Shown here: positions 1 through 30,531 of the stretch, one piece after another
Numbering within the stretch: the stretch's first letter is position 1
How the letters are laid out: each line of letters begins with the position of its first letter
Assembly (NCBI GenBank): GCA_905479635.1
Contig: CAJQNG010000207.1
Location: forward strand, 1 to 33,798
Direction of reading: 5' to 3'
From: an uncultured Boseongicola sp.
GTDB lineage: Bacteria > Pseudomonadota > Alphaproteobacteria > Rhodobacterales > Rhodobacteraceae
Length of the DNA: 33,798 bases
The notes under the pieces: generated by a model
The model's input: the letters and a program-made list of their open reading frames with translations, nothing else
Told to the model about the DNA's origin: nothing
Database searches by the model: none
Translations under genes and position numbers: made by a program

Positions 1-907
1 CACGACGGGGTTTGTCCCAAGATGCCGCCTGATACTCGAAGTCGCCGTAGATGCGCTTAACGCCTTTTGGTGGACGTCCGCCTGGACGCTTTAGAAGATG
101 CGCAATTCTGCCCTGAAGTACACGGTTGGTGCGCAGTCGAATGGCATAGTAATATCTTTCCGCTTCCAGAGTTTTGTATAGCTCCGGGATGGCGAACGCA
201 GCATCCCCCCGGAAGAACCGCATCAGGTGACAATCCGCATATCGCGCGATGACGGGCTTCAGAACCTCTTCCCATCCATCTGCGCTGTGAACATTGCCGG
301 GGCGCAGAGCGCAGCGTTCCAAATGGCCAAACTGGTTGAAGACGAATAGCGGATGATAGCACATGCAGCCGAAATGCCCGTTCCAAGCGGTGCCTTCTTG
401 CGCGCCGTGGGTGGGACTGACCGAGCTGTGCATGTCGAGCGTGATCCACTTGGGCGGTTTGCGATTGTGAACCCGGTCGATCCAATGTCCCGACATGTCA
501 GCCAGCGGCGTGCGATTGTCGCTCGTCGCCAGAACTTCGGTCTCGAACCGTCCCATCTGGCTCGCGGAAGCGGCCTTGGCATCAACGGCCCGTCCTCCGA
601 CCACCTGCCGCATCACCGGATCGAGCGCCAGACGATCTGCATCATTTACATCATCATATCCCGCCAGCCGACCGAAGACAGACTGGCGCAACAGACCAAC
701 CAGAGAATGCAGTCGATTGTGGCCAGTGCGCGTGTCTCTCAGAAATCCACCCGCGATGTCGTGCAGGCCCAGCACCTCATCCAGTTCCCGAAACAACAGC
801 AGACCGCCGTCCGAACTGATCTTCGAGCCATGAAATTCCAGCCGCACTCGCCGGTTAAACCCCAGCCGAACATTGACCGCTCCGTTTGCACCCTCCGGGT
901 GACCCAT
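1..907 (-). CDS. IS1380-family transposase, C-terminus outside the window
   Basis: The minus-strand frame is open from an ATG at 907 to the window edge, about 302 codons, so this is the N-terminal two thirds of a DDE transposase that would cut and paste its own element. Reading it directly gives the IS1380-type blocks: a GLLLFRELDE stretch near residue 35, ITLDMHSS with the presumed first catalytic aspartate at about 158, EGTAWNGHFGCMCYHPLFVFNQ near 171-192, and FFRGDAAF with a second aspartate near 235. The third acidic residue lies beyond the window. GGAG sits about 9 bases before the ATG. As I recall the family, DMDSS is more usual than DMHSS, so the His at 160 may be a substitution. Family call is from motif recognition and is fairly sure; whether the gene is complete cannot be seen. 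Confidence 0.82.
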   Translation of the reverse strand, partial: MGHPEGANGAVNVRLGFNRRVRLEFHGSKISSDGGLLLFRELDEVLGLHDIAGGFLRDTRTGHNRLHSLVGLLRQSVFGRLAGYDDVNDADRLALDPVMRQVVGGRAVDAKAASASQMGRFETEVLATSDNRTPLADMSGHWIDRVHNRKPPKWITLDMHSSVSPTHGAQEGTAWNGHFGCMCYHPLFVFNQFGHLERCALRPGNVHSADGWEEVLKPVIARYADCHLMRFFRGDAAFAIPELYKTLEAERYYYAIRLRTNRVLQGRIAHLLKRPGGRPPKGVKRIYGDFEYQAASWDKPRR

Positions 908-959
908 GAAATCTCGCTCCAGACTGCATTAACATACTGAAATGTAACACGTTACTAGG
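1..959 (-). mobile_element. IS1380-type insertion element, one end inside the window
   Basis: The partial transposase is followed outward by about 50 noncoding bases. They contain arms GTAAC and GTTAC around 2 bases (about 943-954), and the sequence read on the minus strand starts with CC at 959. That position is a plausible outer end, inferred only from IS1380 ends often starting with CC. The other end is not in the window, so neither the inverted repeats nor a TTAA-type target duplication can be checked. Confidence 0.5.
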
Positions 960-1097
960 CAGTCAGGGCGCAAAAATCGTCGGTCTACTTGGGGAATGCG
1001 GGCTAGAACAAGGTTGCGGAGCTGAAATTCACTATCATAAAATACAGATACGCAGTCGCGGAACTGCCTGTGCCGACAACGAGATGGAGTTTTGGTC

Positions 1098-1391
1098 ATG
1101 CTACGCCATATTGTTTTGGTGACCTACAAATCTGAAGCAAGCCTAGAAGAGCGTGCGGCGATGCAGGCAACAGTTGCTGCGTTTGCAGAACAAGTGCCAG
1201 AAGTGCGATCATTGACCTGCGGTGAAAATGTAGGGAGCGGACCGAACCACCATGACTTTGCTATTGTTGCGGATTTCGACGACCTACCCGCCTTTCGCCG
1301 CTATATCGAAAGCGATGCACATCAATCTTATGTCAACACCTATGCGAAGGCGATTGTCGGAAAGCTTGCAGCCATTCAGCATGAATGGTGA
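1098..1391 (+). CDS. Dabb (stress-responsive alpha/beta barrel) domain protein
   Basis: A 97-residue protein that matches the Dabb ferredoxin-like fold over its whole length. It opens with MLRHIVLVTYK, has the E-x-x-x-A-x-x-Q-type helix, then a central strand with NHHDFAIVADFDD, then FRRYIESDAHQSYVN and a closing helix ending HEW. Family members are small dimeric cytosolic proteins, some induced by stress and some acting as polyketide-type cyclases; nothing here fixes a substrate. The frame extends to a TTG at 1092, but GGAGT at 1086-1090 sits 7-8 bases before the ATG at 1098, so that start is chosen. It stands alone between the IS1380 end and the LysR gene, so context adds no functional clue. 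Confidence 0.85.
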   Translation: MLRHIVLVTYKSEASLEERAAMQATVAAFAEQVPEVRSLTCGENVGSGPNHHDFAIVADFDDLPAFRRYIESDAHQSYVNTYAKAIVGKLAAIQHEW

Positions 1392-1641
1392 ACGCGGAGT
1401 CTTAAGATTGGGTTTCTTGTATCATGCATATGGCATTTTTGTTTCTCGCTTCATGGCTGATCATCGGTAAAATTGCCGCTGCACCCAATCTCACGCCTAA
1501 TATTTTGGCTATTTGGTCCAGATCATCATCGGCGTCTGACAAGGCAGCTAAAAACCGTGATGTAAGGCCGTTCACGCGTCTCAGACTCAGGAACACGACA
1601 GTTGGTCATCGCGACGAGTGCGACGGTAGCTCTATCCCGCA

Positions 1642-2592
1642 TTACGGACCTTCGCCACGGTCTCCACGAATGACTGCTAAGCCGGACTTTCCAGACATTC
1701 GAACTGTGTCGGCTAGCCCTCGCGCCAGAAAGTCGAACACGACCCTGATACGACGGCTGGTTCTGAGTTCGCGATGCGTGACTAACCACACCGGGAATTC
1801 AAGCGATGGGAGATCGGGCAACACCTTTTCGATTCCGGGTGTGGCCTCCCCCAGCAGCTCTGGCATATACGTGATGCCGTAGCCCGCTTTGACCAATTCC
1901 CACTGGACGACGCCGCTTTCGCTGGACATCACGAAATTCTCGCTACGCACGGGAATACCCTTATCACGCAGCGTGGTCACCAACTGATCGGAGTTTGGAC
2001 TGCCGACAAAGGCATGGTCCGCCAACGCGCGCGGTGCGCGCGGGCGCCCTGCTTTGTCCAGATACGCGGAAGCAGCGTAAAGGCTGGCCCGAAAATCGCC
2101 CAGATGCCGCGCGATCAGGTCGGGTTCGGTGGGCCGGACGTGACGGATCGCGATGTCGGCCTCGCGCCGCATCAGGTTCGAGATGTCGTTCGATGCAATG
2201 ATCCGAAGATGGATGCCCGGTGCTGTTTCACGAAGGTCACCGAGCAGACCCGGAAGGATTGCTGCCGACACCAGATCGGTGGCGGAAACTGCAACCTCTC
2301 CGGTTACTTCCTGGGATTGGCCCGCCGCAACTGTCGAAATCAGCGTCGCCGTCTCGCCCATAACCCGCACGTGATCCAAGAGATCCCGCCCGGCCGCGGT
2401 CAGGGTCGGTCCTCGCACAGTGCGTTCAAACAATGTGACGCCAAGCGCAGCCTCCAGTCCGGATATCTGGCGCCCGATTGTCGGTTGCGTCGTCTTCAGG
2501 GCGCGGGCCGCACCACTGAACGAGCCTTCCTCTGCGGTCGCAAGGAAGGCCCGCACCTGGTTCCAATCAAAGGACATCGCCTGCCAGTTCAT
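1642..2592 (-). CDS. LysR-family transcriptional regulator
   Basis: 316 residues, normal for the family. The N-terminal winged helix-turn-helix is clear (about residues 8-66: WNQVRAFLATAEEGSFSGAARALKTTQPTIGRQISGLEAALGV in outline), followed by the linker helix and a periplasmic-binding-protein-like effector domain (about 95-300) with DLVSAAILPGLL and the IRHVRP strand. It is a cytosolic DNA-binding regulator whose ligand cannot be predicted. It is divergent from the methyltransferase at 2678/2714, and the roughly 85-120 bp gap is the likely shared operator region, so control of that gene set is a reasonable guess. A second in-frame ATG at 2577 (MSFDWNQV) fits the usual LysR N-terminus about as well; no strong ribosome binding site separates the two starts. 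Confidence 0.9.
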   Translation of the reverse strand: MNWQAMSFDWNQVRAFLATAEEGSFSGAARALKTTQPTIGRQISGLEAALGVTLFERTVRGPTLTAAGRDLLDHVRVMGETATLISTVAAGQSQEVTGEVAVSATDLVSAAILPGLLGDLRETAPGIHLRIIASNDISNLMRREADIAIRHVRPTEPDLIARHLGDFRASLYAASAYLDKAGRPRAPRALADHAFVGSPNSDQLVTTLRDKGIPVRSENFVMSSESGVVQWELVKAGYGITYMPELLGEATPGIEKVLPDLPSLEFPVWLVTHRELRTSRRIRVVFDFLARGLADTVRMSGKSGLAVIRGDRGEGP

Positions 2593-2713
2593 ATGCAGGC
2601 GTATAGCTAAAGTACGATTTTCCGCAATACCTCTTCGCTCAACGCATGGCTAGTGCTCCTGCTCAAGGAGATACGCAATGCAAGACCCCGTACCACGCTC
2701 AAAGGAAAACAAC

Positions 2714-3337
2714 ATGTCCGCCCAAGCCTTCTGGGACCGGCAAGCTATCAAGTATGCCAAGAAACCCATCGCCGATCTAACCGCCTACGAAGAAAAACTT
2801 CAGCGTATCCGGTCGGTCCTGCGCCCGACCGACCGGATCCTTGAAATCGGCTGCGGGACGGGTGGCACCGCACGGAAGATCGCGACCGGGGTCGCCCATG
2901 TCACCGCGACCGATCTCTCCGCCGAGATGATCCGAATCGCGCGGTCGAGATCAGATGAGTTCACCGCGAAGAAAATTGAGATTCTTCAGGCCGAAGCGTC
3001 GCAGGAGGTGTCGGGATATCCCTTTGACGCCATCTGCGCTTTCAGCCTTCTCCACCTGGTGGATGACATTCCCAACGTTCTGGACGCTGTGTACCGGCAA
3101 GTGAAGCCCGGTGGTCTTTTCTTGTCGAAAACCGTTTGTCTCAAAGACAGCTCGCGCTGGATCCAGGTCATCGTACGCATGCTAGTTTCATTGCGAATTG
3201 CTCCGAAGGTGGTGTGCATAAGTCGAGCCGAATTGACCCGACATCTCATCAGCGCCGGGTTCGAAATCGACCAGACGGTCTACTTTGATAAGAAACGTAT
3301 GAGTCCGTTCATCATCGCACGGCGACCGGCCGATTGA
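2714..3337 (+). CDS. class I SAM-dependent methyltransferase
   Basis: A 207-residue Rossmann-fold methyltransferase. The SAM-binding glycine loop is ILEIGCGTGGTA at about 42-53, the acidic residue ending strand 2 is in TATDLSAEM, the motif IV region is FDAICAFSLLHL and the post-core block is QVKPGGLFLSKT. The acceptor is unknown. Conserved sequence begins at SAQAFWD, and AAAGGA lies about 8 bases before the ATG at 2714. An in-frame ATG at 2678 has an even better AAGGAG 8 bases upstream and would add 12 poorly conserved residues, so either start is possible. It heads a plus-strand run with the membrane protein at 3400 and the methyltransferase at 3895, opposite a LysR regulator. Confidence 0.88.
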   Translation: MSAQAFWDRQAIKYAKKPIADLTAYEEKLQRIRSVLRPTDRILEIGCGTGGTARKIATGVAHVTATDLSAEMIRIARSRSDEFTAKKIEILQAEASQEVSGYPFDAICAFSLLHLVDDIPNVLDAVYRQVKPGGLFLSKTVCLKDSSRWIQVIVRMLVSLRIAPKVVCISRAELTRHLISAGFEIDQTVYFDKKRMSPFIIARRPAD

Positions 3338-3399
3338 GCGCAGATTTGCGGTAAGCACCCCAGCCCTTCCACCCATGAAAACATGAAAGACCCATTCCG

Positions 3400-3798
3400 A
3401 TGGAAACGATCGATACGAAAGCCAAACTCTCGGCCCTTTGGCTATTCATTCTTCTCAACATCATCTTCCGCGACATCCATCAGTATGCATTGAAATCCCA
3501 CCTCGAGATGCTGCTGACAGGGACCTACAACGGGACCGTGATTACCGACACGATAATGCTTATTGGCGGCTTTCTGGTCGAAGTCTTGATAGCCATGGTG
3601 CTCTTTTCTCTGCTTCTGGACCGTAGGATCGGGCGACCGGTTACCTTCTTCGCGGCCTTGACGACAACAGGCACACTCCTCTCGACCCCGCCGAGCGACC
3701 CCGATGACGTCTTCTTCTTGATTATCGAACTGGCTGCGATGTCTTCGATCCTCTGGACGGCGTGGACTTGGCCGGATCACGTCAGGTCCCCCGCATAA
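3400..3798 (+). CDS. small four-helix integral membrane protein (DUF6326-like)
   Basis: 132 residues with four predicted membrane segments: about 9-28 (LSALWLFILLNIIFRDIHQY), 49-73, 79-97 and 103-124, and short polar termini. The first helix with its L-N-I-I-F-R-D motif resembles DUF6326-type proteins, which have no established function; this assignment is from memory of the family. It would sit in the inner membrane. It starts 62 bp after the preceding methyltransferase and ends 96 bp before the next one, so co-transcription is likely. It could be a minor component of whatever the two methyltransferases modify, but that is speculation. Confidence 0.75.
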   Translation: METIDTKAKLSALWLFILLNIIFRDIHQYALKSHLEMLLTGTYNGTVITDTIMLIGGFLVEVLIAMVLFSLLLDRRIGRPVTFFAALTTTGTLLSTPPSDPDDVFFLIIELAAMSSILWTAWTWPDHVRSPA

Positions 3799-3894
3799 AT
3801 CATCTGCGCCCCAAGGCTCGCGTCGTCATCAACCATGGTTTGACGCGACTGGAGGGGGCCAACGAACGCCCAGCATTGGAGCAGGACCAACCAC

Positions 3895-4557
3895 ATGTTT
3901 ACACAGACGCCTGCACGCGACCTCGCCGATCACTACGACAGGATGGCGTCCAATTATGACAAGTTTCACCGCCGGTGGCTGCGGCATGCAGGTGGTGAGG
4001 CCCAGGCGGCATTGGAGGCTCTGGTGCGGGCACTTATCACGACAGACACGGATCTGCTTGATGCTGGTTGTGGCACCGGCACCTTGGCACGCACCTTGAT
4101 CGCGGAGGGCATGTCGCCAGCCAAAATGACCCTTCTCGATCCCTCAGACGCAATGTTGGCAAGATGCAGCGACATCCCGGCGGTGCAAGTTAAAGGACGA
4201 TTGGAGTCCCTGCCCTTTGAGGATGCAAAATTTGATATAGTGACCTGCGCTTGGGCGCTCGAAACCGTCCCGCATCCGAACCTGGCATTAAAGGAGCTTT
4301 GCCGTGTCGTTCGACCTGGCGGCGTGCTTTGTCTGGCGTTTTGCGCTAATTTTCCGGCACGTGGCCTTGCCGACGGTTTGATGCGCCAAGCCCTCTTGTG
4401 GCGCGGCAGTGGCCAATTCCTTTCGCATGGACACGTCATACACACCCTTGAAAATGCAGGGGAGTTTGTGGTTCGCTCAGTTCCAAGTACGGGGCCCGCA
4501 GCGACCCTCCTCGCGAAGCGAAAGGAAAAAATCGGCACGACCTCGATTGCTGTCTAA
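3895..4557 (+). CDS. class I SAM-dependent methyltransferase (Methyltransf_11 type)
   Basis: 220 residues. After a helical lead-in with HYDRMASNYDKFH (typical of UbiE/Coq5-like small-molecule methyltransferases) comes the SAM loop LLDAGCGTGTLA at about 54-65, then the acidic strand LLDPSDAML with Asp at 82, the motif SLPFEDAKFDIVTCAWALETV and the post-core CRVVRPGGVL. The protein is cytosolic. The YD-x-F start and the LPFEDAKFD motif favour a small or lipid-like acceptor over nucleic acid. AGGA lies about 9 bases before the ATG. It is the last gene of the run that begins at 2678/2714; the sequence after its stop is noncoding. Confidence 0.88.
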   Translation: MFTQTPARDLADHYDRMASNYDKFHRRWLRHAGGEAQAALEALVRALITTDTDLLDAGCGTGTLARTLIAEGMSPAKMTLLDPSDAMLARCSDIPAVQVKGRLESLPFEDAKFDIVTCAWALETVPHPNLALKELCRVVRPGGVLCLAFCANFPARGLADGLMRQALLWRGSGQFLSHGHVIHTLENAGEFVVRSVPSTGPAATLLAKRKEKIGTTSIAV

Positions 4558-5052
4558 GCGTGCCGCGCCCTAACTTCGCACCTCAGAAAGAGGTAGGGTA
4601 TCGGTTTGTATGACTGCCAAAGTCTGTTCAGCGAGTCGCTGCGTCAGCGGCAGGCAGCCGCTTACAGCCTAGTGACCGGCTAGATGCTGAAGGATTTGTC
4701 GTCAAGGATTTTTGAAAAGTGCGCAATTTGGCAATGCGGATATTTGTGGCGCCGCAGAACAGTGGCATTTTGGGATCCTAGCTGCCGTTCACTACTCATG
4801 CGATCTTTTGGTTCACAGGCGCGGCAATCTTGGTGTGCCTGGCGGGCGCACTGAGTGATCACGAAGATCGAATGCCCCCGCTATCAGCTTCCGGTTCGCC
4901 GAGGTGGCCATGATCAGAAACACAGTCAGTGCCGTCCTGGCTGCCTTGCACCGCCTTCGGTTGTCAACGTCCGGCGTTCTATCTTCTAAAACGACAAAGC
5001 ACTTGCGGAATGCCGGTTCAGTTGCAGCTTCGTGTCATGTTATGGGCCTGAC
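4558..5052. other. intergenic region without a recognisable gene
   Basis: About 495 bases. No convincing coding frame was found. One plus frame near 4790-4910 reads like the hydrophobic tail of a membrane protein (FWFTGAAILVCLAGALS) and stops at the TGA at about 4911-4913, but it has no start and no upstream continuation. At best it is a gene relic. No tRNA, strong hairpin or repeat was seen. Confidence 0.5.
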
Positions 5053-15229: not shown

Positions 15230-15478
15230 AGAACCGTAGGTTTGTTTTGTCTTGGGCATGAAATTCAAAGGTCGTTAATTCCCGCTTAGCAGACCTTGGT
15301 GAATCCCGCAGCAAAGGTCGGCTTTGAGCGGCGGTCACAATTGATCGACGCAACACTTGCATTGAAACGCTCGGCGGCGGTTTCGTATCCCAGCGTCATT
15401 CGGGTCGTTCGTTAAGCTGTCTGGGCGACAGCACTCAGCTTGGCTTCCCTATGTGTCAACAAATCCGTCCCTTTTTGG

Positions 15479-15483
15479 AAGTA
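15479..15483. repeat. 5-bp target site duplication AAGTA, left copy
   Basis: AAGTA directly abuts the left terminal repeat and is repeated at 20169-20173 against the right one. A 5-bp duplication is the hallmark of Tn3-family insertion. Confidence 0.85.
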
Positions 15484-15516
15484 GGCCTAGCTGGCCCGAA
15501 GCTGCATATTTGGGCT
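15484..15516 (+). repeat. Tn3 left terminal inverted repeat (33 bp)
   Basis: Exact reverse complement of 20136-20168. It starts with GGCC at the outer edge and ends with ATATTTGGGCT. Pairing stops on the inner side at base 34. Confidence 0.93.
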
Positions 15517-15558
15517 TTTGAGAGAACATATGCGAAACAGGTCGCTGGTTGACGGGCT

Positions 15559-15585
15559 GTCCTGATGCAGGACGATGCTATCGTC
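15559..15585. promoter_or_regulatory. two adjoining dyads before the transposase start
   Basis: GTCCTG-ATG-CAGGAC (15559-15573) and GACGAT-GCT-ATCGTC (15571-15585) share three bases and end 10 bp before the ATG at 15596. They could be operator half-sites or mutually exclusive RNA hairpins that limit transposase translation. The dyads are seen directly; the role is inferred. Confidence 0.35.
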
Positions 15586-15595
15586 TGAAGGTGTC

Positions 15596-18332
15596 ATGAC
15601 GGAGCAAGCATTTGCCACTATTTGGGGGCTTTCCTATTCCGATTTCGAGTTTCTGAGCCGGTATGGAGCGAGTTCCCGGGTCATGGTTGCGTGCCAGCTG
15701 CTTTTCTTTCGCCAGCATGGCTATTTTCCTGAGGACCGTTCTGCGTTTGATCCTGATGCGATCGAGTATGTTGCTGATCAAATTGGTATTGAAGACTGCC
15801 TTGCTTATAGCTTTGCCAGCGATAATGCCCGCCGCCAGCGTGCGGGCATTTTGGGTTTCCTTGGAGTCCGCCGGGCATCTGAGCGTGATCGCGCTAAACT
15901 TCAGGCATGGATGGGGAAGCACCTTGGCGGTCGCGACCTGAACTTGGCGGATTGGGTTGAGCGCGGCTATGCACAAGCCTGTCAAATGGGTGTTTTTGTT
16001 CCTTCGGAGCAAATCATGGAGCGCCTGGCCCGCGCGTCCCGCCGTGATTTTCGCAAAGGTTTTCTGGCGCAAGTGGGATTACAGCTATCGGTCGAGACTA
16101 TTGAGCAGTTGGAATGGGCGCTCTCTGAACCTTTGGCGGAAACGGGTTTTCAGCGGCTGAAGGACGATGTTGGTGCCGCATCGTTAGACAGCGTGTTGCG
16201 GGCGGCGCTGAGGGTGTCCTTTTTCGAGGGGCTCAATCTTCCGCTTGATATTCTAGTTGGCGTTGAACGCTGTTGGGTTTCGCGCCTGGCACGGTAAGTC
16301 GAGGGCGAAACCGCCTCAGAGATGCGGCGCCATGCGCTTGAGCGACGGTTGGGCCTTCTTGCCATCTATCTGATGCATCGCAAATCACAGCTGACCGACG
16401 GTCGGATCGAAGATGTCATTTACCCTATCGCGGGCGCGGCCAGGCTACATGCTGTTATCGAAGAACATCGGACCAAGGGGACGCTGGATGCGCGCATCCA
16501 ACAAGTCATGCGCAATTCTTATGCCAGCCACTATCGCCGGATCCTTCCGCCCTTGCTCAGCTCTTTGCAATTTCGCTCGAACAAAGCAATGTGGCACCCG
16601 ATATTGACCGCCTTGGACCCGATTGTCCGGTTTGCGGAAGCTGACTGCCGGGTTGTTGACGAAGACTACATTCCCTGTGGTATCATCCCCGGAACGTGGC
16701 GCAGCGCAGTCATCGATGAGAATGGCCGGGTCAGTGTTGTGTCCTTCGAACTCTGTGTGCTGACGCAGCTGCGAGAGCGCATCCGTGCCAAGGAAATATG
16801 GATAGAGTGCGCGGACCGCTACCGTAACCCCGGTGAAGACCTGCCCAGAGACTTCTGATGCGCGCCGGGATACCTACTACGCTGATCTGGGCTTGTCGCA
16901 GGATGCGAAGAGCCCAGTAGCAGGTGTGAAAGCAGAATTGGAACGGGAGCTGCACCTGCTGAATACAACCTTGCCCGACAATGACAAGGTGCGCCTGAGG
17001 TGGAGTGGAGAGAACCCTATTTCGCTTACGCAGTTGACGCCGGTTCCTCAGCCGCCCGGCCTGGGTGCGTTGAAGGCCGAGGTCGCCCGAGCATGGCCAA
17101 TGACGGGCCTACTTGATGTTCTGAAGGAAACGGCCCTCGACACCGGTTTCTTGAACGGCTTTCAAACCTCGGCCAGCCGGGAGGCGCTTCCTCCGACACT
17201 TCGGGATCAGCGCTTGCTGCGCTGCCTCTATGGTTTGGGCCCGAATGCGGGCTTGAAACGCGTAGCCGCTGGTTCACCCGATGTCAGCTATGATGAGCTC
17301 TTGCACATTCGGAGGCGGTATATTGATCCTGCTGCTTTGAAGGCGGCCTGTGCGCAAGTTTCCAATGCGACGCTTGCAGTCCGAAATCCAGATGTCTGGG
17401 GACCGCCAGGCACGACTTGCGCAGCGGATTAAACCAAGTTCGGGGCGTGGGATCTCAACCTGATGACCGAATGGCACGCACGCTATGGCGGGTGCGGCGT
17501 CATGATTTACTGGCATGTCGAGCGGCAAGCGACCTGCATCTATTCCCAACTGAAGCGCTGCTCATCCTCTGAGGTCGCCGCCATGATCGAAGGCGTTCTG
17601 CGGCACTGCACGGATATGGAAATCCAAAGACAGTATGTCGACAGCCACGGCCAAAACGCCGTTGGCTTTGCCTTCTGTCACCTTCTGGTCTTTGAGCTTG
17701 CACCCCGCCTGAAAGCCATCGCGCGTCAGAAGCTTGCCCTTCCCAGTGCGGGCATGCGAGGGCAACTGACCAATCTGCTGCCCATCCTGTCAGGTGTTGT
17801 TGATTGGGACGAAATTGAACGTCAGTATGACGAAATGGTCAAATACGCGGCGGCCAGCCAGCACGGGACGGCGGACCCTGAGGCCATCTTGCGCCGGTTC
17901 GCACGTTCAGATGTGATGCACCCTACCTACAAGGCGCTCGCCGAACTGGGTCGCGCCATCAAAACGATCTTCCTATGCCGCTATCTGCGCTCTGAGGCGT
18001 TCCGTCGGGAAATTCACGAGGGGCTGAACGTCGTCGCGAACTGGAACAGCACCAATAGCTTTGTGTTCTTCGGCAAGGGCGGTAAGATCGCCACTAACCG
18101 TTTGCGAGATCAGGAAACCGCTGCCCATGCGCTACAGCTGCTGCAATCATCTCTGGTCTACGTGAACACCCGGATGATGCAATCCGTCTTGCGCAACCCC
18201 GACGTGGTCGCGCGTCTGTCCCCCGAGGACTATCGCGGCCTTTTCCCGCTCATACACCTCCACATCAACCCCTATGGCCGGTTCGAGGTCGATCTGGAAA
18301 AGCGGATCGATTTCGAACCCATGGCCGCATAA
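15596..18332 (+). pseudogene. tnpA: Tn3-family transposase with two in-frame TAA codons and a frameshift
   Basis: Read through its lesions this gives a protein of about 911 residues. It has an N-terminal DUF4158-type domain (ATIWGLSYSDFEFLSRYG), a middle region and a C-terminal DDE_Tnp_Tn3 domain. Lesion 1 is a TAA at 16295-16297, after which the same frame goes on VEGETASEMRRHALERRL. Lesion 2 is one extra base near 16855: PRDF stops at TGA, while DARRDTYYADLGLSQDA continues in the +1 frame. Lesion 3 is a TAA at 17430-17432, exactly after the first catalytic Asp (CAAD), with [19 protein letters not shown] following in frame. The other catalytic residues are present: Asp in YVDSHGQN and Glu in [16 protein letters not shown] lies 5 bases before the ATG at 15596; an ATG at 15575 is also in frame. 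Confidence 0.92.
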
Positions 18333-18340
18333 AGGCACTC

Positions 18341-18958
18341 ATGGCGAAGAAAGAACCCCAAGTCCTGCGTTTGAAAATCACCCTTGGGCATGTCGACCCC
18401 GCACCGTGGCGTGAAATCGAGATCCGGTCGGACAAGACCCTGCCGCATCTGCATGACGCCATTCAGGCGGCCTTCCTGTGGAACGACATGCATCTGTGGG
18501 ATTTCGAGATTGGCGACCGGAAATACCAAATGAAAAGCGAAGAGTTCTGGATCGAACCGATGTTCGGCCCGCCTTTGATGGAGGTCACCACGAAGAGGCT
18601 GGACTTCTTTTTGAACAGCAAGGTGCCGCCTGTGATCTATACCTACGATTTTGGGGATGACTGGGTGCATCGCGTCGAACTCGTTTCAAAGCGTTCGGTT
18701 GAGCCGAATGAACTGCAGCCACGTTTTGTTGCTGGTCAGTGGGCAACACCACCGGAGGACATTGGAGGCCCGCCAATGTACGAGGTCTTCAAGGAGGCAC
18801 GTGCAGATAAAAACCACGCGGAACATGAATGGGCCAAAGAGGGTGGATACGTCGATTGGGATCACATCGAGATCCATGCCGACGCTATCGCCGAACAATT
18901 CTCCAAACTGCAGAAGCAGAAAATACGACGAACCTCACACTGGGTTCGGGAGAGATGA
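18341..18958 (+). CDS. plasmid pRiA4b ORF-3 family protein, transposon cargo
   Basis: 205 residues of the PRiA4_ORF3 family. Diagnostic stretches are LRLKITLGHVDPAPWREIEI near the start, TLPHLHDAIQAAFLWNDMHLWDFEI at about 44-68, and VIYTYDFGDDWVHRVELVSK at about 98-117, then EDIGGPPMYEVF. Some family members resemble a TnpR-like protein of IS1096, but no biochemical function is firmly established as far as I know. AAAGG lies 5 bases before the ATG, 8 bp after the tnpA stop, so it is probably co-transcribed with the transposase. The reading frame is intact, in contrast to tnpA. Confidence 0.9.
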   Translation: MAKKEPQVLRLKITLGHVDPAPWREIEIRSDKTLPHLHDAIQAAFLWNDMHLWDFEIGDRKYQMKSEEFWIEPMFGPPLMEVTTKRLDFFLNSKVPPVIYTYDFGDDWVHRVELVSKRSVEPNELQPRFVAGQWATPPEDIGGPPMYEVFKEARADKNHAEHEWAKEGGYVDWDHIEIHADAIAEQFSKLQKQKIRRTSHWVRER

Positions 18959-19077
18959 AGTGTCATCATGGGTATACCCATGGGGACACCTTCAATGACA
19001 CTAGAGCAATCCACTTTTGTGTTCACTTTGGGCCGATTTCTCGATAATGAACAAGCCATGTCGAGGGCACACCCAAA
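18959..19077. promoter_or_regulatory. probable res site of the Tn3-type resolvase
   Basis: The 119-bp gap before the recombinase gene contains two dyads. One is a perfect 16-bp palindrome, CATGGGTATACCCATG (18967-18982). The other is a 34-bp segment whose ends TGTTCA and TGAACA (19020-19053) are inverted. Resolvase sites usually lie just upstream of tnpR and consist of two or three such dyads, one holding the crossover dinucleotide. Position and structure fit; which dyad is the crossover point cannot be told. Confidence 0.55.
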
Positions 19078-19635
19078 ATGAACACTTATCAGGCCAAAAT
19101 CGGATATGCGCAGACCTCGACTGCGGATCAGAACCTCGATGCGCAGATTGCCGCCCTGAAAGCAGCCGGGTGTGGCATGGTCCGCACCGAGCAAAAGAGT
19201 GGTGCTAGCCTTGAGGGGCGGGCCGAGCTTAAGACGATCCTCGACTTCATCCACTCAGGTGAGACTCTGGTGGTCACCCGTATCGATCGGCTGGCCCGCA
19301 GCCTCAGTGACCTGCAGACAATCGTCGCCCAGCTGAAGTCCAAGGGCGCGCATCTGGCCGCAACAGAGCAGCCAGTGGACACCTCAAACGTCACGGGAAA
19401 GGCCTTCTTTGACATGCTCGGTGTTTTTGCCGAGTTCGAGACAAATCTGCGGCGTGAGCGGCAAGCCGAGGGCATTCTCGCTGCCAAGCAGCGTGGCGTG
19501 TATCGCGGCCGCCTCCCGAAAATCGATATGGCCACCATTCAGGCGAAGCTGTCAGAGGGCATGTCGCCTACGGAAATCGCACGTGACATGGGAATATCGC
19601 GGGGCACTGTTTATAAAGCAAAGGCTTTGATGTGA
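19078..19635 (+). CDS. tnpR: serine recombinase / resolvase (TnpR-type) with altered active site
   Basis: 185 residues, normal resolvase length. The catalytic domain has the nucleophile Ser14 in KIGYAQTSTADQ, then RIDRLARS (R68, D70, R71, R74), the dimer helix FFDMLGVFAEFETNLRRERQAEG and a C-terminal helix-turn-helix at about 152-183 (GMSPTEIARDMGISRGTVYKAK). It would resolve cointegrates at the res segment just upstream. The oddity is Gln12 where resolvases have the invariant Arg of Y-A-R-x-S; one base change (CGG to CAG) explains it. That Arg is part of the active site in gamma-delta and Tn3 resolvase, so catalysis may be lost or reduced. Its stop overlaps the start of the next gene. Confidence 0.92.
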   Translation: MNTYQAKIGYAQTSTADQNLDAQIAALKAAGCGMVRTEQKSGASLEGRAELKTILDFIHSGETLVVTRIDRLARSLSDLQTIVAQLKSKGAHLAATEQPVDTSNVTGKAFFDMLGVFAEFETNLRRERQAEGILAAKQRGVYRGRLPKIDMATIQAKLSEGMSPTEIARDMGISRGTVYKAKALM

Positions 19636-20111
19636 AAAAAAACAAGACAAAGCAGCGGCCTCCAGTGGCAAAGCCACCGGCCCAAACAAACACAAAAGTA
19701 CCACCCCCGCGCAATCTGACGCCCCCGCTCTGTGAGAAACTGCGCCGGGACATGATGCAAGCGTGTCTAAAGGTGGCGGAGACGCACGGGTTGACGGTTG
19801 AAGGCGGGGAGCTGAGTGACATCGACTTGCGTCATGGTTTTGACATCAGCTTCCGCGTCGGTATTCCGATGCCAGACGGCGCGATCTATTCCCCGGACAA
19901 AGCCCTTTTTGAAGTCCTTGCTCCACATTTTGGCCTTGAACCATCTGACTATGGACGGCCCTTCAGATTGCGTGGAGACCTCTACCGGATTGTGGCAATC
20001 AATCCCAACAGACCAAAGTACCCGATTAGCACTGAGCGTGTTTCCGACGGGCGCGGGTTTAAGATGCCAGCCGAAACCGTCGTAATGTATCTGCAGAACT
20101 CCAGCGCCTGA
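19632..20111 (+). CDS. unknown 159-aa protein, transposon cargo
   Basis: Not recognised as a named family. The start is a GTG overlapping the recombinase stop (GTGA), so the two are translationally coupled. The first 30 residues are basic and proline-rich (KKNKTKQRPPVAKPPAQ). The rest looks like a compact alpha/beta domain: a helix CEKLRRDMMQACLKVAETHGL, then DIDLRHGFDISFRVGIP, FEVLAPHFGLEPSDYGRPFRLRGDLYRIVAINPNRPKYPIS and FKMPAETVVMYL. The G-x-x-Y-R-I-V-x-x-N-P-x-R-x-K-Y-P-I pattern recalls small phage and plasmid proteins of unknown function. The coupling suggests a role with the recombinase or in element maintenance. Confidence 0.75.
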   Translation: MKKNKTKQRPPVAKPPAQTNTKVPPPRNLTPPLCEKLRRDMMQACLKVAETHGLTVEGGELSDIDLRHGFDISFRVGIPMPDGAIYSPDKALFEVLAPHFGLEPSDYGRPFRLRGDLYRIVAINPNRPKYPISTERVSDGRGFKMPAETVVMYLQNSSA

Positions 20112-20135
20112 CTGTTCACATATTGTTTCCGTCGG

Positions 20136-20168
20136 AGCCCAAATATGCAGCTTCGGGCCAGCTAGGCC
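20136..20168 (-). repeat. Tn3 right terminal inverted repeat (33 bp)
   Basis: Perfect inverted copy of 15484-15516, immediately followed outside by AAGTA at 20169-20173. It lies only 24 bp beyond the stop of the last cargo gene. Confidence 0.93.
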
Positions 20169-20268
20169 AAGTAGTGTCGCATCAGACGATTGGTATTTTC
20201 ACGAACTGTAGCTTTCCCTCGATCGCAGGCGCTCCATAACGGCTGACCAAAGGGCCGGCGCTGTGCGC

Positions 20269-26802: not shown

Positions 26803-27609
26803 ATTTGTTGGCATTATCACAGATTACGCAGCCACTATTTCAAACCATTCAGTGAATGCCTTGGCGCGCGTTTGATGGAGAGTTCTTCGGGAGACCAGAT
26901 GGCGCTGCAAATTGAAATGGTTGTAAATGGCATCGTGGGCGGACAGAAGCCGTTGCATTGACCCGGGCGATTTGAACCGTCCCATTCGGCGTTCTCGACG
27001 TCGGGTTGGCCTCCTATCATGGTTTTGCAAACAAACCACTGCCGGGCAATGGATGTGAAACCTCTGCCTGATTGTTCAATCGAACGCCCGCGACATGAAG
27101 CTGGGTCAAACCAAGCTCTCGAAGTGCCGCAGAATATGAACCCAGTTTGTCAGTGACAATTTCATCCGGAATGTACATCTGCTTTTTCAGGAGTTTCCGC
27201 ATGAGCTTAAGGGCCGTGCGCTTGTTTCGGCGAGATTGGGCCAGGACTTCAAGGACTTCGCCTTCATCGTCTACGGCGCGCCACAGATATGTCCGCTTGC
27301 CACCGATGCGGACAAAAACCTCATCAAGATGCCAGGTTCCCGACGGTTGAACTCTGCGGGCTCTGACGTTGGCGGCAATCGCCGGGCCAAATTTCAAAAC
27401 CCATCGGCAGATCGTCTCATAGCTGACATCGATTCCGCGTTCGGCCAGCATCTCCTCAACGTCACGAAAACTCAACGAAAAGCGAAAGTGGAGCCAGACT
27501 GCCCGTTGAATTGCTGATGCCGAAAATCGGTAGCGTACGTAAGATAGGTTGCTCATTCAAACACAATTACCGGCCTTCTGGCCGATCGTCGAGTTAATGT
27601 GACAATGCC
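26773..27609. mobile_element. IS6-family insertion sequence, damaged
   Basis: About 837 bp. The ends GGCCTTGTCACATTAACT (26773-26790) and the inverse of GGCATTGTCACATTAACT (27592-27609) agree at 17 of 18 bases. A second end-like copy, GGCATTATCACA (26810-26821), lies just outside the transposase stop, so the left side may carry two nested ends. No 8-bp target duplication is seen: CCACCAAT on the left, CTGCTGAG on the right. The lack of duplication, with hpxZ cut and not resumed, suggests the element took part in a deletion or cointegrate. Confidence 0.75.
26824..27556 (-). pseudogene. IS6-family transposase interrupted by a short insertion
   Basis: The N-terminal 160 residues are a clear IS6 DDE transposase: RYRFSASAIQRAVWLHFRFSLSFRDVEEMLAERGIDVSYETICRW, first Asp in WHLDEVFVRI, second in IVTDKLGSY. 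After NNQAEVSH the expected text is Q-P-T-R-R-R-E-R-R-M with the catalytic Glu. Instead about 40 extra bases (roughly 27009-27052) bring a stop after GLFAKP. The rest, PTRRRERRMGRFKSPGSMQRLLSAHDAIYNHFNLQRHLVSRRTL, continues in another frame to the TAA at 26824. All three catalytic residues survive but not in one frame, so the product is probably inactive. Confidence 0.85.
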
Positions 27610-28967: not shown

Positions 28968-29077
28968 TCGTCTTTTGATTTCGTCTGGACGATTTCGCCA
29001 CCACTGCGAATGTCCGCTTCGTCCCGTATTCTGTTGAAAAACTCTTGTTTATCTGTGGCCATGGCGCTGATTCAATT

Positions 29078-30531
29078 GGGAGTGGAAAGACCCTGCGGAT
29101 TCAGATTGATCTCGGCCTATCTTTTTGCCTTCGTTGCAGGAGGATTTGTTATGAAAGTTCGTATCAGGATTGAAACGGAGTTTGGCTGGGGCGAGCGCCG
29201 TTCCCATGAGATTGGCGTCATTGAACGGAGTTCTATTGATGCGTCGGAAGATAGCCTTGGTATCAGCCTCGCCGAGGGCAAATCGATCTTGGAAGAAGTC
29301 CAGCGCGCGGTTCTTCAGGATCACGTGGAAGACATCAGCGAAGTAGAGCGGGCATGCCCACACTGCCAGGCGTATTTGCGTGTACATGATCGTCGTAAAC
29401 GGCGGGTTGATACTCTTTTCGGTCGTGTGACTGTCGAAGCGCCTCGGATCCGGATGTGCATGTGCGGTTTGCCGGGCCTTCCCGAGTTCAAGGTGGGGCA
29501 TTCTCCGCTTACGCGGATTTTGAGAGACAATGCCATACCTGAGCTTAGGAGGCTTCAAGCCGAGCTGGGAAGCCGGCATAGTTTTCGAGAAGCCGCGCAC
29601 CTGCTGAACGAACTAACACCTTGCGCCAGCCAGAACCACGCAACGATCCGTAACCGACTTGCCTCGGTCGCCAAGGCTCTGGAAGAACGGTGCGACGAGG
29701 CACCGACGGGCACGGGTGTTCAATCAAATCCTTCCGAAGTGCCGGGTTTTCTAGACAGCGCATACGTTCGCTCACGCCCCGAATATCAAAGGCGAAACTT
29801 CGAAGTCATTGTGGGGTCTATTGAAAGCGAAACAGCTGAAAAACGGCGGTTTGGATTGAGCCAGATGGGTGCCGACCGCCCAACGGAATACTTGCGGTCC
29901 AACCTGAAAGCCGCTGGTTGGATGGATAGCGTTGCAGTGACCGTTTTTTCTGATGGCGATCCGGCACTGCCTCGCTTGGTTAAGAACGCGACGAGTGCTG
30001 ATGTTCATCACGCTCTTGATTGGTGGCATATATCGGTGCGCATCAGGCATGTGGAGACAACATTCCAACCGCTGCTGTCACAAATTGAACCGGACGGCGC
30101 CGCAGAGATCGCCGCACTTGTTGAGCGACTTCGCTGGCGCATATGGCATGGCCAGATAGACCGCGCGCTCGATGCGCTTGACGATTTGTTCCGCTTTGCG
30201 ATGCGAGCACGCGAATACACCTATCGTGAGTCAAACGATGCGGCGCTCTCGGCCGCCTCGCGCGCAATGGTTCTAAGGACATACTTGTGCCGCAACCTGT
30301 CAGCTATCGTCAACTACGGAGATCGACGTCAGCAAGGAAAAGCGGTCTCAACGTCGAGGGCAGAAGGTCTCGTCAATGAGATCGCCAATGTGCGCCTGGG
30401 AAAGAAACAGCGCATGAGATGGTCTCCAAAGGGGGCTCATCACGTTGCGATTGTCAGCGCCGCTGTCTTGGATGGAAGGCTCTCTTCAGGGCATCTGGCT
30501 GCGGCGTGATCCCCAGACTCCTTCCACCCCC
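29078..30531. mobile_element. ISKra4-family insertion sequence with degenerate ends
   Basis: The transposase is bracketed by imperfect inverted repeats: GGGAGTGGAAAGACCCTGCG at 29078-29097, and on the other strand from 30531 GGGGGTGGAAGGAGTCTGGG, agreeing at about 18 of 23 positions through GGAT. The right repeat reaches into the transposase stop codon. No target duplication was seen. Boundaries are therefore tentative, although the length of about 1.45 kb suits a single-gene member of this family. Confidence 0.5.
29151..30509 (+). CDS. ISKra4-family transposase
   Basis: 452 residues, apparently intact. The N-terminal part has a zinc-ribbon-like CPHCQAYLRVHDRRKRRVDTLFGRVTVEAPRIRMCMC (cysteines near 67, 70 and 101-103). 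The catalytic core holds FSDGDPALPRLVKNATSADVHHALDWWHISVRIRH, and the C-terminus has the family-typical KKQRMRWSPKGAHHVA. AGGAGG lies 7 bases before the ATG at 29151; the frame extends up to 29010 but that part is noncoding and contains the IS end. It moves its own element. It is one of the few transposase genes in the window with no visible lesion. Confidence 0.9.
   Translation: MKVRIRIETEFGWGERRSHEIGVIERSSIDASEDSLGISLAEGKSILEEVQRAVLQDHVEDISEVERACPHCQAYLRVHDRRKRRVDTLFGRVTVEAPRIRMCMCGLPGLPEFKVGHSPLTRILRDNAIPELRRLQAELGSRHSFREAAHLLNELTPCASQNHATIRNRLASVAKALEERCDEAPTGTGVQSNPSEVPGFLDSAYVRSRPEYQRRNFEVIVGSIESETAEKRRFGLSQMGADRPTEYLRSNLKAAGWMDSVAVTVFSDGDPALPRLVKNATSADVHHALDWWHISVRIRHVETTFQPLLSQIEPDGAAEIAALVERLRWRIWHGQIDRALDALDDLFRFAMRAREYTYRESNDAALSAASRAMVLRTYLCRNLSAIVNYGDRRQQGKAVSTSRAEGLVNEIANVRLGKKQRMRWSPKGAHHVAIVSAAVLDGRLSSGHLAAA

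What the first reader, a model, noticed from the sequence alone, without database searches (positions are those of the whole stretch)
15484..20168. Tn3-family transposon with perfect ends and TSD but a triply broken transposase
The 33-bp inverted repeats are identical and the AAGTA duplication is intact, signs of a young insertion. Yet tnpA has TAA codons at 16295-16297 and 17430-17432 and one extra base near 16855, and the second TAA falls right after the first catalytic Asp. Ends and coding region should decay together, so either the element moved in trans after tnpA died or the lesions are very recent. The GGCC-starting 33-bp ends also differ from the usual 38-bp GGGG pattern, so it may be an unclassified Tn3 subgroup.
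Basis: partly seen in the sequence, partly recalled or inferred. Interest (0 to 1): 0.72.

Follow-up and report, generated by a model that had tools for sequence, protein, structure and literature searches.

The report
Recently dead Tn3-family transposon copy
An alphaproteobacterium carries a jumping gene whose ends are still perfect but whose moving enzyme is ruined in several ways; the short ends are simply a small target for mutation, so this looks like an ordinary, recently dead copy from a group of transposons for which I found no name.

Summary
Window 15484-20168 has 33/33 complementary ends and AAGTA on both sides; a paralogous IS30 gene in the same genome shows the empty site with one AAGTA. 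Both tnpA stops and the extra base are there. tnpR has lost its conserved active-site Arg (now Gln).

The inference fails on arithmetic: the ends are 66 bp, tnpA 2.7 kb. About 1.0-2.7% neutral change since tnpA died (point estimates) leaves both ends unchanged with probability 0.18-0.59. Simple recent death suffices; movement in trans is possible but not required; assembly error is very unlikely.

The same 33-bp end occurs unchanged in seven relatives, four with full-length tnpA. TnpA belongs to a supported GGCC-ended clade (Rhodobacterales, Sphingobium, Mesorhizobium), 18-27% identical to the named Tn3 elements compared; Tn163, Tn5393 and IS3000 were not tested.

In passing: four relatives lack tnpA and join the same kind of tnpR right half to other left genes, and only 3 of 18 elements have an exact target duplication, which suggests module swapping near res.

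The parts
15321..15483 (-). remnant of an IS30-family transposase gene, the target of the insertion (left part)
   Evidence: 79-84% identical copies on contigs C55, C78, C172, C24 of the same genome; the C55 ORF scores 259 bits to NCBIfam IS30 (cut-off 80)
15479..15483 (.). left copy of target duplication AAGTA
   Evidence: single AAGTA at the empty site on C55
15484..15516 (+). left terminal inverted repeat, 33 bp
   Evidence: 33/33 complementary to 20136-20168
15517..15540 (+). subterminal end motif (GAACA-like pair)
   Evidence: shared, imperfectly, with relatives' ends
15596..18332 (+). tnpA remnant, Tn3-family transposase, broken
   Evidence: DUF4158 and DDE_Tnp_Tn3; aligned to the 962-aa TnpA of Octadecabacter sp. 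SW4
16295..16297 (+). in-frame stop TAA
16399..16427 (+). region of a 153-bp in-frame deletion relative to five relatives
16840..16860 (+). one-base insertion (frameshift), aligned at 16855
17430..17432 (+). in-frame stop TAA right after the first catalytic Asp
18036..18038 (+). codon of the catalytic Glu, here Ala
   Evidence: aligned with E881 of Tn4430 TnpA; Glu in 9 of 10 relatives, Gly in one
18341..18958 (+). pRiA4b ORF-3-like passenger gene, 205 aa, open
   Evidence: PF07929, E 1.3e-40
18959..19077 (+). probable res region: palindrome GGGTATACCC 18970-18979 and TGTTCA/TGAACA pair 19020-19053
   Evidence: read; function inferred from its place before tnpR
19078..19635 (+). tnpR, serine resolvase, 185 aa, open, conserved active-site Arg replaced by Gln at residue 12
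   Evidence: PF00239; Arg in all 8 relatives and all 4; aligned
19632..20111 (+). conserved ORF of unknown function, 159 aa, downstream of tnpR
   Evidence: no Pfam or NCBIfam match; model pLDDT 73, no PDB match at E<=0.001
20136..20168 (-). right terminal inverted repeat, 33 bp
20169..20173 (.). right copy of target duplication AAGTA
20174..20200 (-). IS30 remnant, right part

Best explanation
A single Tn3-family (paste-and-copy) transposon of a GGCC-ended alphaproteobacterial clade, with gene order tnpA, pRiA4b-like gene, res, tnpR, conserved ORF. It inserted into an IS30 remnant and left a 5-bp duplication (shown by the empty-site paralogue). Its tnpA then, or shortly before, lost function and is drifting: two stops, a frameshift, a 153-bp deletion and loss of the catalytic Glu (shown). 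Ends and TSD are still perfect because 76 bp is a small target for the about 1-2.7% neutral change since death (inferred from substitution counts). tnpR has an active-site substitution and is probably also impaired (inferred).
For: Ends, TSD and empty site. Lesions. More amino-acid changes at otherwise invariant sites than relatives: 57 missense and 34 synonymous in the window against 75 and 113 pooled in four relatives, Fisher p 5e-4. Expected stops from that decay 0.8-2.2, observed 2; expected end changes 0.7-1.8, observed 0, probability 0.18-0.59. Full-length uninterrupted tnpA in 9 of 14 relatives examined. No second copy of the ends or of this TnpA in the own genome.
Against: The excess of amino-acid change is not significant against the nearest relative L036 alone (p 0.48) nor by paired polarisation (87 N and 103 S in the window, 59 and 79 in L036, p 0.65), so the time since death is poorly fixed. 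Disabling lesions are confined to tnpA; the other three ORFs are open (probability of none there 0.09 at the tnpA rate), and tnpR plus the 159-aa ORF carry few changes (8 N, 19 S; not significantly different from tnpA, p 0.15). That pattern would also suit continued selection on the rest of the element. The order of insertion and death is not shown.
Confidence: 0.75

Rival explanations
1. The element moved in trans: tnpA died first and another element's TnpA, recognising the same ends, placed the dead copy here. Ends stayed perfect because they were still in use.
For: The same 33-bp end occurs in relatives with full-length tnpA (L036, L042, L043, L048). Relatives without tnpA keep both ends plus tnpR (L034, L037, L039, L054). 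Trans-mobilised tnpA-less Tn3 elements with a resolvase gene are known (TIME-RES, PMC4133298, passages read). tnpR and the last ORF are open and little changed.
Against: No helper TnpA of this clade and no other copy of the ends in the 71%-complete own genome. None of the four tnpA-less relatives has an exact TSD (L037 has 4 of 5). tnpR has lost its conserved Arg. Perfect ends need no such history.
Confidence: 0.2
2. The lesions are assembly or sequencing errors in a metagenome-type contig.
For: The genome is a draft of 269 contigs, 70.8% complete; reads could not be examined.
Against: Four different kinds of change plus many missense changes at conserved sites, catalytic Glu included, fall in one gene. 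Elsewhere in the window long genes match full profiles in one frame: symporter 1-384/387, gamma-glutamyltranspeptidase 1-512/512, ISKra4 transposase 2-422/422.
Confidence: 0.03
3. The element is a res-recombined hybrid: its right half (tnpR, ORF, right end) came from another element, so the ends do not share one age.
For: Identity to L036 changes along the element: 70-82% over 15484-17483, 92-96% over 18084-18483, 73-79% over 18484-19083, 85-94% over 19084-20083. L034 shares only the right half, at 90%. Left and right halves are mixed in relatives.
Against: The 92-96% block lies left of res, so one swap at res does not explain the pattern. The intact TSD means that any hybrid moved as a unit afterwards. 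This rival is compatible with the best explanation.
Confidence: 0.3

Closest known systems
Tn3-like element on plasmid pow41 of Octadecabacter sp. SW4 (NZ_CP042820.1, L014)
   Same: same gene order tnpA, pRiA4b-like gene, tnpR, ORF; TnpA C-part 89% identical
   Different: tnpA uninterrupted; ends 23/33 alike to each other; no exact TSD
Element of Roseovarius sp. ZX-A-9 (L036)
   Same: same gene order; 84% DNA identity over query 912-4685 and 76% over 1-927; right end 33/33
   Different: tnpA uninterrupted; no exact TSD
Cryptic Paracoccus Tn3-family transposons Tn6122 and Tn3434 (PMC3281130, passages and section 19 read)
   Same: Tn3 family of Alphaproteobacteria; Tn6122 has identical IRs and homologues in Sulfitobacter, Ruegeria and Roseovarius
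   Different: as described there tnpA and tnpR are divergent, IRs 38-39 bp, TSD 6 bp; here tnpA and tnpR point the same way and the TSD is 5 bp. P. halophilus JCM 14014, source of Tn6122, has no match to this TnpA clade at E<=1e-60
TIME-RES (PMC4133298, passages read)
   Same: tnpA-less Tn3-derived unit with ends, tnpR and res, moved in trans; resembles the short relatives L034, L037, L039, L054
   Different: the window copy still holds a tnpA remnant; ends unlike those of Tn5563a (recalled, not aligned here)

Membership tests
Tn3 family | large TnpA with Tn3-type DDE domain | tested here: met
   DDE_Tnp_Tn3 E 7e-20 and 7e-96 on two pieces, DUF4158 E 9e-15; NCBIfam transpos_Tn3 on two pieces tested alone, each below the whole-protein cut-off of 500 bits
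Tn3 family | D-D-E catalytic triad | tested here: not met
   in this copy both Asp are kept and the Glu is Ala; met in 9 of 10 relatives, so this marks a dead copy, not another family
Tn3 family | terminal inverted repeats of about 38 bp | tested here: met
   33 bp perfect, 38/45 identical with the subterminal part
Tn3 family | 5-bp (5-6) target duplication | tested here: met
   AAGTA; empty site on contig C55
Tn3 family | resolvase and res site | tested here: inconclusive
   resolvase gene present with its conserved Arg changed; res only inferred from sequence
Tn3 family | replicative transposition through a cointegrate | not testable with these tools
   needs an experiment
named Tn3 subgroups | TnpA falls with Tn21, Tn5403, IS1071, Tn4651 or Tn4401 | tested here: not met
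   18-26% identity; ten GGCC-ended rows form a clade, support 99/98, apart from all five; the named elements in the 60 rows shown (Tn3, TnAs1, ISPa38, ISArsp6, ISAcsp1, Tn5403) are at 24-27%
named Tn3 subgroups | TnpA falls with Tn163, Tn5393 or IS3000 | not tested
   no reference obtained; two record look-ups failed
TIME / TIME-RES | no transposase gene, ends and resolvase kept | tested here: not met
   the window keeps a tnpA remnant of 2.7 kb; met by relatives L034, L037, L039, L054
TIME / TIME-RES | moved in trans by a related TnpA | not testable with these tools
   no helper seen in the incomplete own genome

The most novel reading that the evidence does not exclude
In this GGCC-ended clade the lasting unit is the right half (res, tnpR, 159-aa ORF, right end). 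It swaps left halves near res, taking up tnpA plus the pRiA4b-like gene or other genes, and the product is moved in trans when a TnpA is at hand. The window copy would then be an element on its way from self-moving to passenger: tnpA free to decay, ends kept in use.
Probability: 0.15. Interest if true: 0.5.

Novelty: new member of a known kind. Interest (0 to 1): 0.25.

Why it matters
It shows that perfect ends do not date a Tn3 insertion and that a dead transposase with intact ends needs no special cause. It also points to a widespread alphaproteobacterial Tn3 clade without a name in the annotations seen here, some of whose members have lost tnpA and carry other genes, which is a natural place to test res-mediated module exchange.

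Tried and rejected
Excess decay of tnpA as proof of long death: strong by one count (59 amino-acid singletons against 34 synonymous in the window; L014 18/37, L048 15/31, L057 13/22, L036 29/23; the near-identical trio L042 0/2, L043 3/2, L062 2/4 was left out of the pooled test) and (32 window changes at conserved sites against 6 in L014), but not against L036 alone nor by paired polarisation. I therefore give a range and no firm age.

tnpR and the last ORF as still under selection while tnpA decays: suggestive, not significant (p 0.15). The shorter end of tnpR as a lesion: rejected, four relatives (L034, L036, L037, L038) also have 185 aa.

The 159-aa ORF as toxin-antitoxin part: only a chance-level PHROG hit (E 0.046), no Pfam, NCBIfam or PADLOC hit, no PDB fold match at E<=0.001.

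Copies elsewhere: no exact 33-bp match in viral contigs; one match each with up to 3 mismatches in 3 of 393 other genomes of the family; one plasmid record by megablast, covering 38%.

Papers: no paper of the held library contains the 13-letter core of the end or both 'Tn3-family' and 'pRiA4b ORF-3'. One search listed two papers with pRiA4b and Tn3, judged by title only. Whether ISfinder or TnCentral names this clade could not be searched. I found no passage confirming the resolvase Arg as catalytic, so that role is recalled.
Full report
WHAT IS THERE. Window 15484-20168 is a complete Tn3-family transposon: 33-bp terminal repeats that are 100% complementary, AAGTA on both sides, a tnpA region with DUF4158 and the Tn3 DDE domain, a pRiA4b ORF-3-like gene, a serine resolvase gene and a 159-aa ORF of unknown function. 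The target is the remnant of an IS30-family transposase gene. Four other contigs of the same genome hold 79-84% identical copies. The C55 copy codes for an IS30 transposase (259 bits, cut-off 80) and aligns across the junction of the joined flanks over 191 bp with one AAGTA, which proves the duplication.

THE BREAKS. Alignment to Tn4430 TnpA (PDB 7qd4), whose triad is D679, D751, E881 (PMC9579193, passages), shows that both Asp codons remain, the second stop directly follows the first, and the Glu is Ala; 9 of 10 relatives have Glu and one, L057, has Gly. In tnpR the Arg before the active-site Ser is Gln in the window only: Arg in 8 of 8 relatives and in 4 of 4. It aligns with the Arg of Sin and Gin; that this is gamma-delta R8 and catalytic is recalled.

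IS THERE A CONFLICT? They probably do, but the two ends are 66 bp and tnpA 2.7 kb. From the excess of missense over synonymous singletons I estimate 0.010 (reference L036), 0.024 (four relatives pooled) or 0.027 (three relatives) neutral changes per site since death, 95% intervals reaching from 0 to 0.039. Expected end changes are 0.7-1.8, probability of none 0.59-0.18; expected stops 0.8-2.2, observed two. So perfect ends are unremarkable. The estimate is weak: against L036 alone, or with paired polarisation, the excess is not significant. If death was even more recent, the ends are still less surprising.

PERFECT ENDS ARE NOT A CLOCK. A scan of 84,980 genomes with the 159-aa ORF (two peptide patterns) gave 31 loci, most of them Rhodobacterales by title. 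The window's 33-bp end occurs unchanged in six of them (L034, L036, L041, L042, L043, L048) and in Sulfitobacter sp. OXR-159 (L004), with aligned interiors of about 73-90% identity; four of the seven (L036, L042, L043, L048) have full-length tnpA. Elements with full-length tnpA can have unlike ends (L014, 23/33). So end identity does not follow transposase health.

WHO ELSE IS BROKEN. Of 14 relatives examined for tnpA, 9 are full length and uninterrupted, L055 lacks about 300 codons in frame, L045 is interrupted, and L035, L038, L040 are fragments.

CLASSIFICATION. TnpA sequences with GGCC ends from Rhodobacterales, Phyllobacteriaceae, Sphingobium and Mesorhizobium form a ten-row clade (support 99/98) apart from Tn21, Tn5403, IS1071, Tn4651 and Tn4401, at 18-26% identity to these. 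Named elements in the 60 rows shown of the 5000 records kept are at 24-27%; unnamed enterobacterial, Vibrio and Streptomyces elements at 40-44%. A sister at 46-48% identity in the same family (G228) shows an inverted pair that does not begin with GGCC, and one Vibrio end is GGCC-like. Annotation names the nearest relatives only 'Tn3 family transposase'. PMC7157771 (passages) lists seven subgroups; Tn163 and IS3000 were not obtained, so 'new subgroup' is open.

MODULES. Four relatives lack tnpA: L034 (1,616 bp), L037 (1,725), L039 (1,652), L054 (1,358). L034 and L039 share a left half with a divergent 94-aa ORF but have different tnpR-ORF right halves; L037 has another left ORF. The genomes holding them (G299, G302, G303, G304) have no TnpA of this clade at E<=1e-60; in all, 5 of 10 genomes searched had none. 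An exact 5-bp duplication is found in 3 of 18 elements with both ends: the window, L048 and L017 (L037 has 4 of 5). Exchange between elements near res would account for both facts; this is inference.

MECHANISM. Most likely an ordinary paste-and-copy insertion into an IS30 remnant, followed by loss and drift of tnpA. It now moves, if at all, only with a helper TnpA, and its own resolvase is probably impaired. A helper was not seen in the 71%-complete genome. The host belongs to the family of Octadecabacter sp. SW4, since family member G049 holds the same 108,352-base plasmid with the same coordinates.

VERDICT. Observation confirmed and extended; the puzzle dissolves; ordinary dead copy, with a side finding on module exchange worth following.

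Noticed in passing
L034 5422-7037, L037 2418-4142, L039 5387-7038, L054 2545-3902: Short relatives with both ends, tnpR and the 159-aa ORF but no tnpA; L034 and L039 share a left half with a divergent 94-aa ORF yet have different right halves, suggesting exchange near res.
   Followed up: partly
18 elements listed: Only 3 of 18 elements of this clade with both ends have an exact 5-bp target duplication; the rest have none, though several have full-length tnpA and near-identical ends.
   Followed up: partly
L057 (Falsigemmobacter intermedius): Full-length uninterrupted TnpA with Gly in place of the catalytic Glu: a dead transposase without any stop.
   Followed up: no
window 15321-15483 and contigs C55, C78, C172, C24 of G000: Several diverged copies or remnants of an IS30-family element in the host genome.
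   Followed up: partly
window 2-907, 27017-27556, 29010-30509: Further transposases around the element: DDE_Tnp_1_4 type at the window edge, a short IS240/IS6-type ORF, and a full-length ISKra4-family transposase: an IS-rich stretch.
   Followed up: no
window 19632-20111: Conserved 159-aa ORF always next to tnpR in the loci looked at in detail, no family match, predicted helix plus beta domain without a PDB match.
   Followed up: partly
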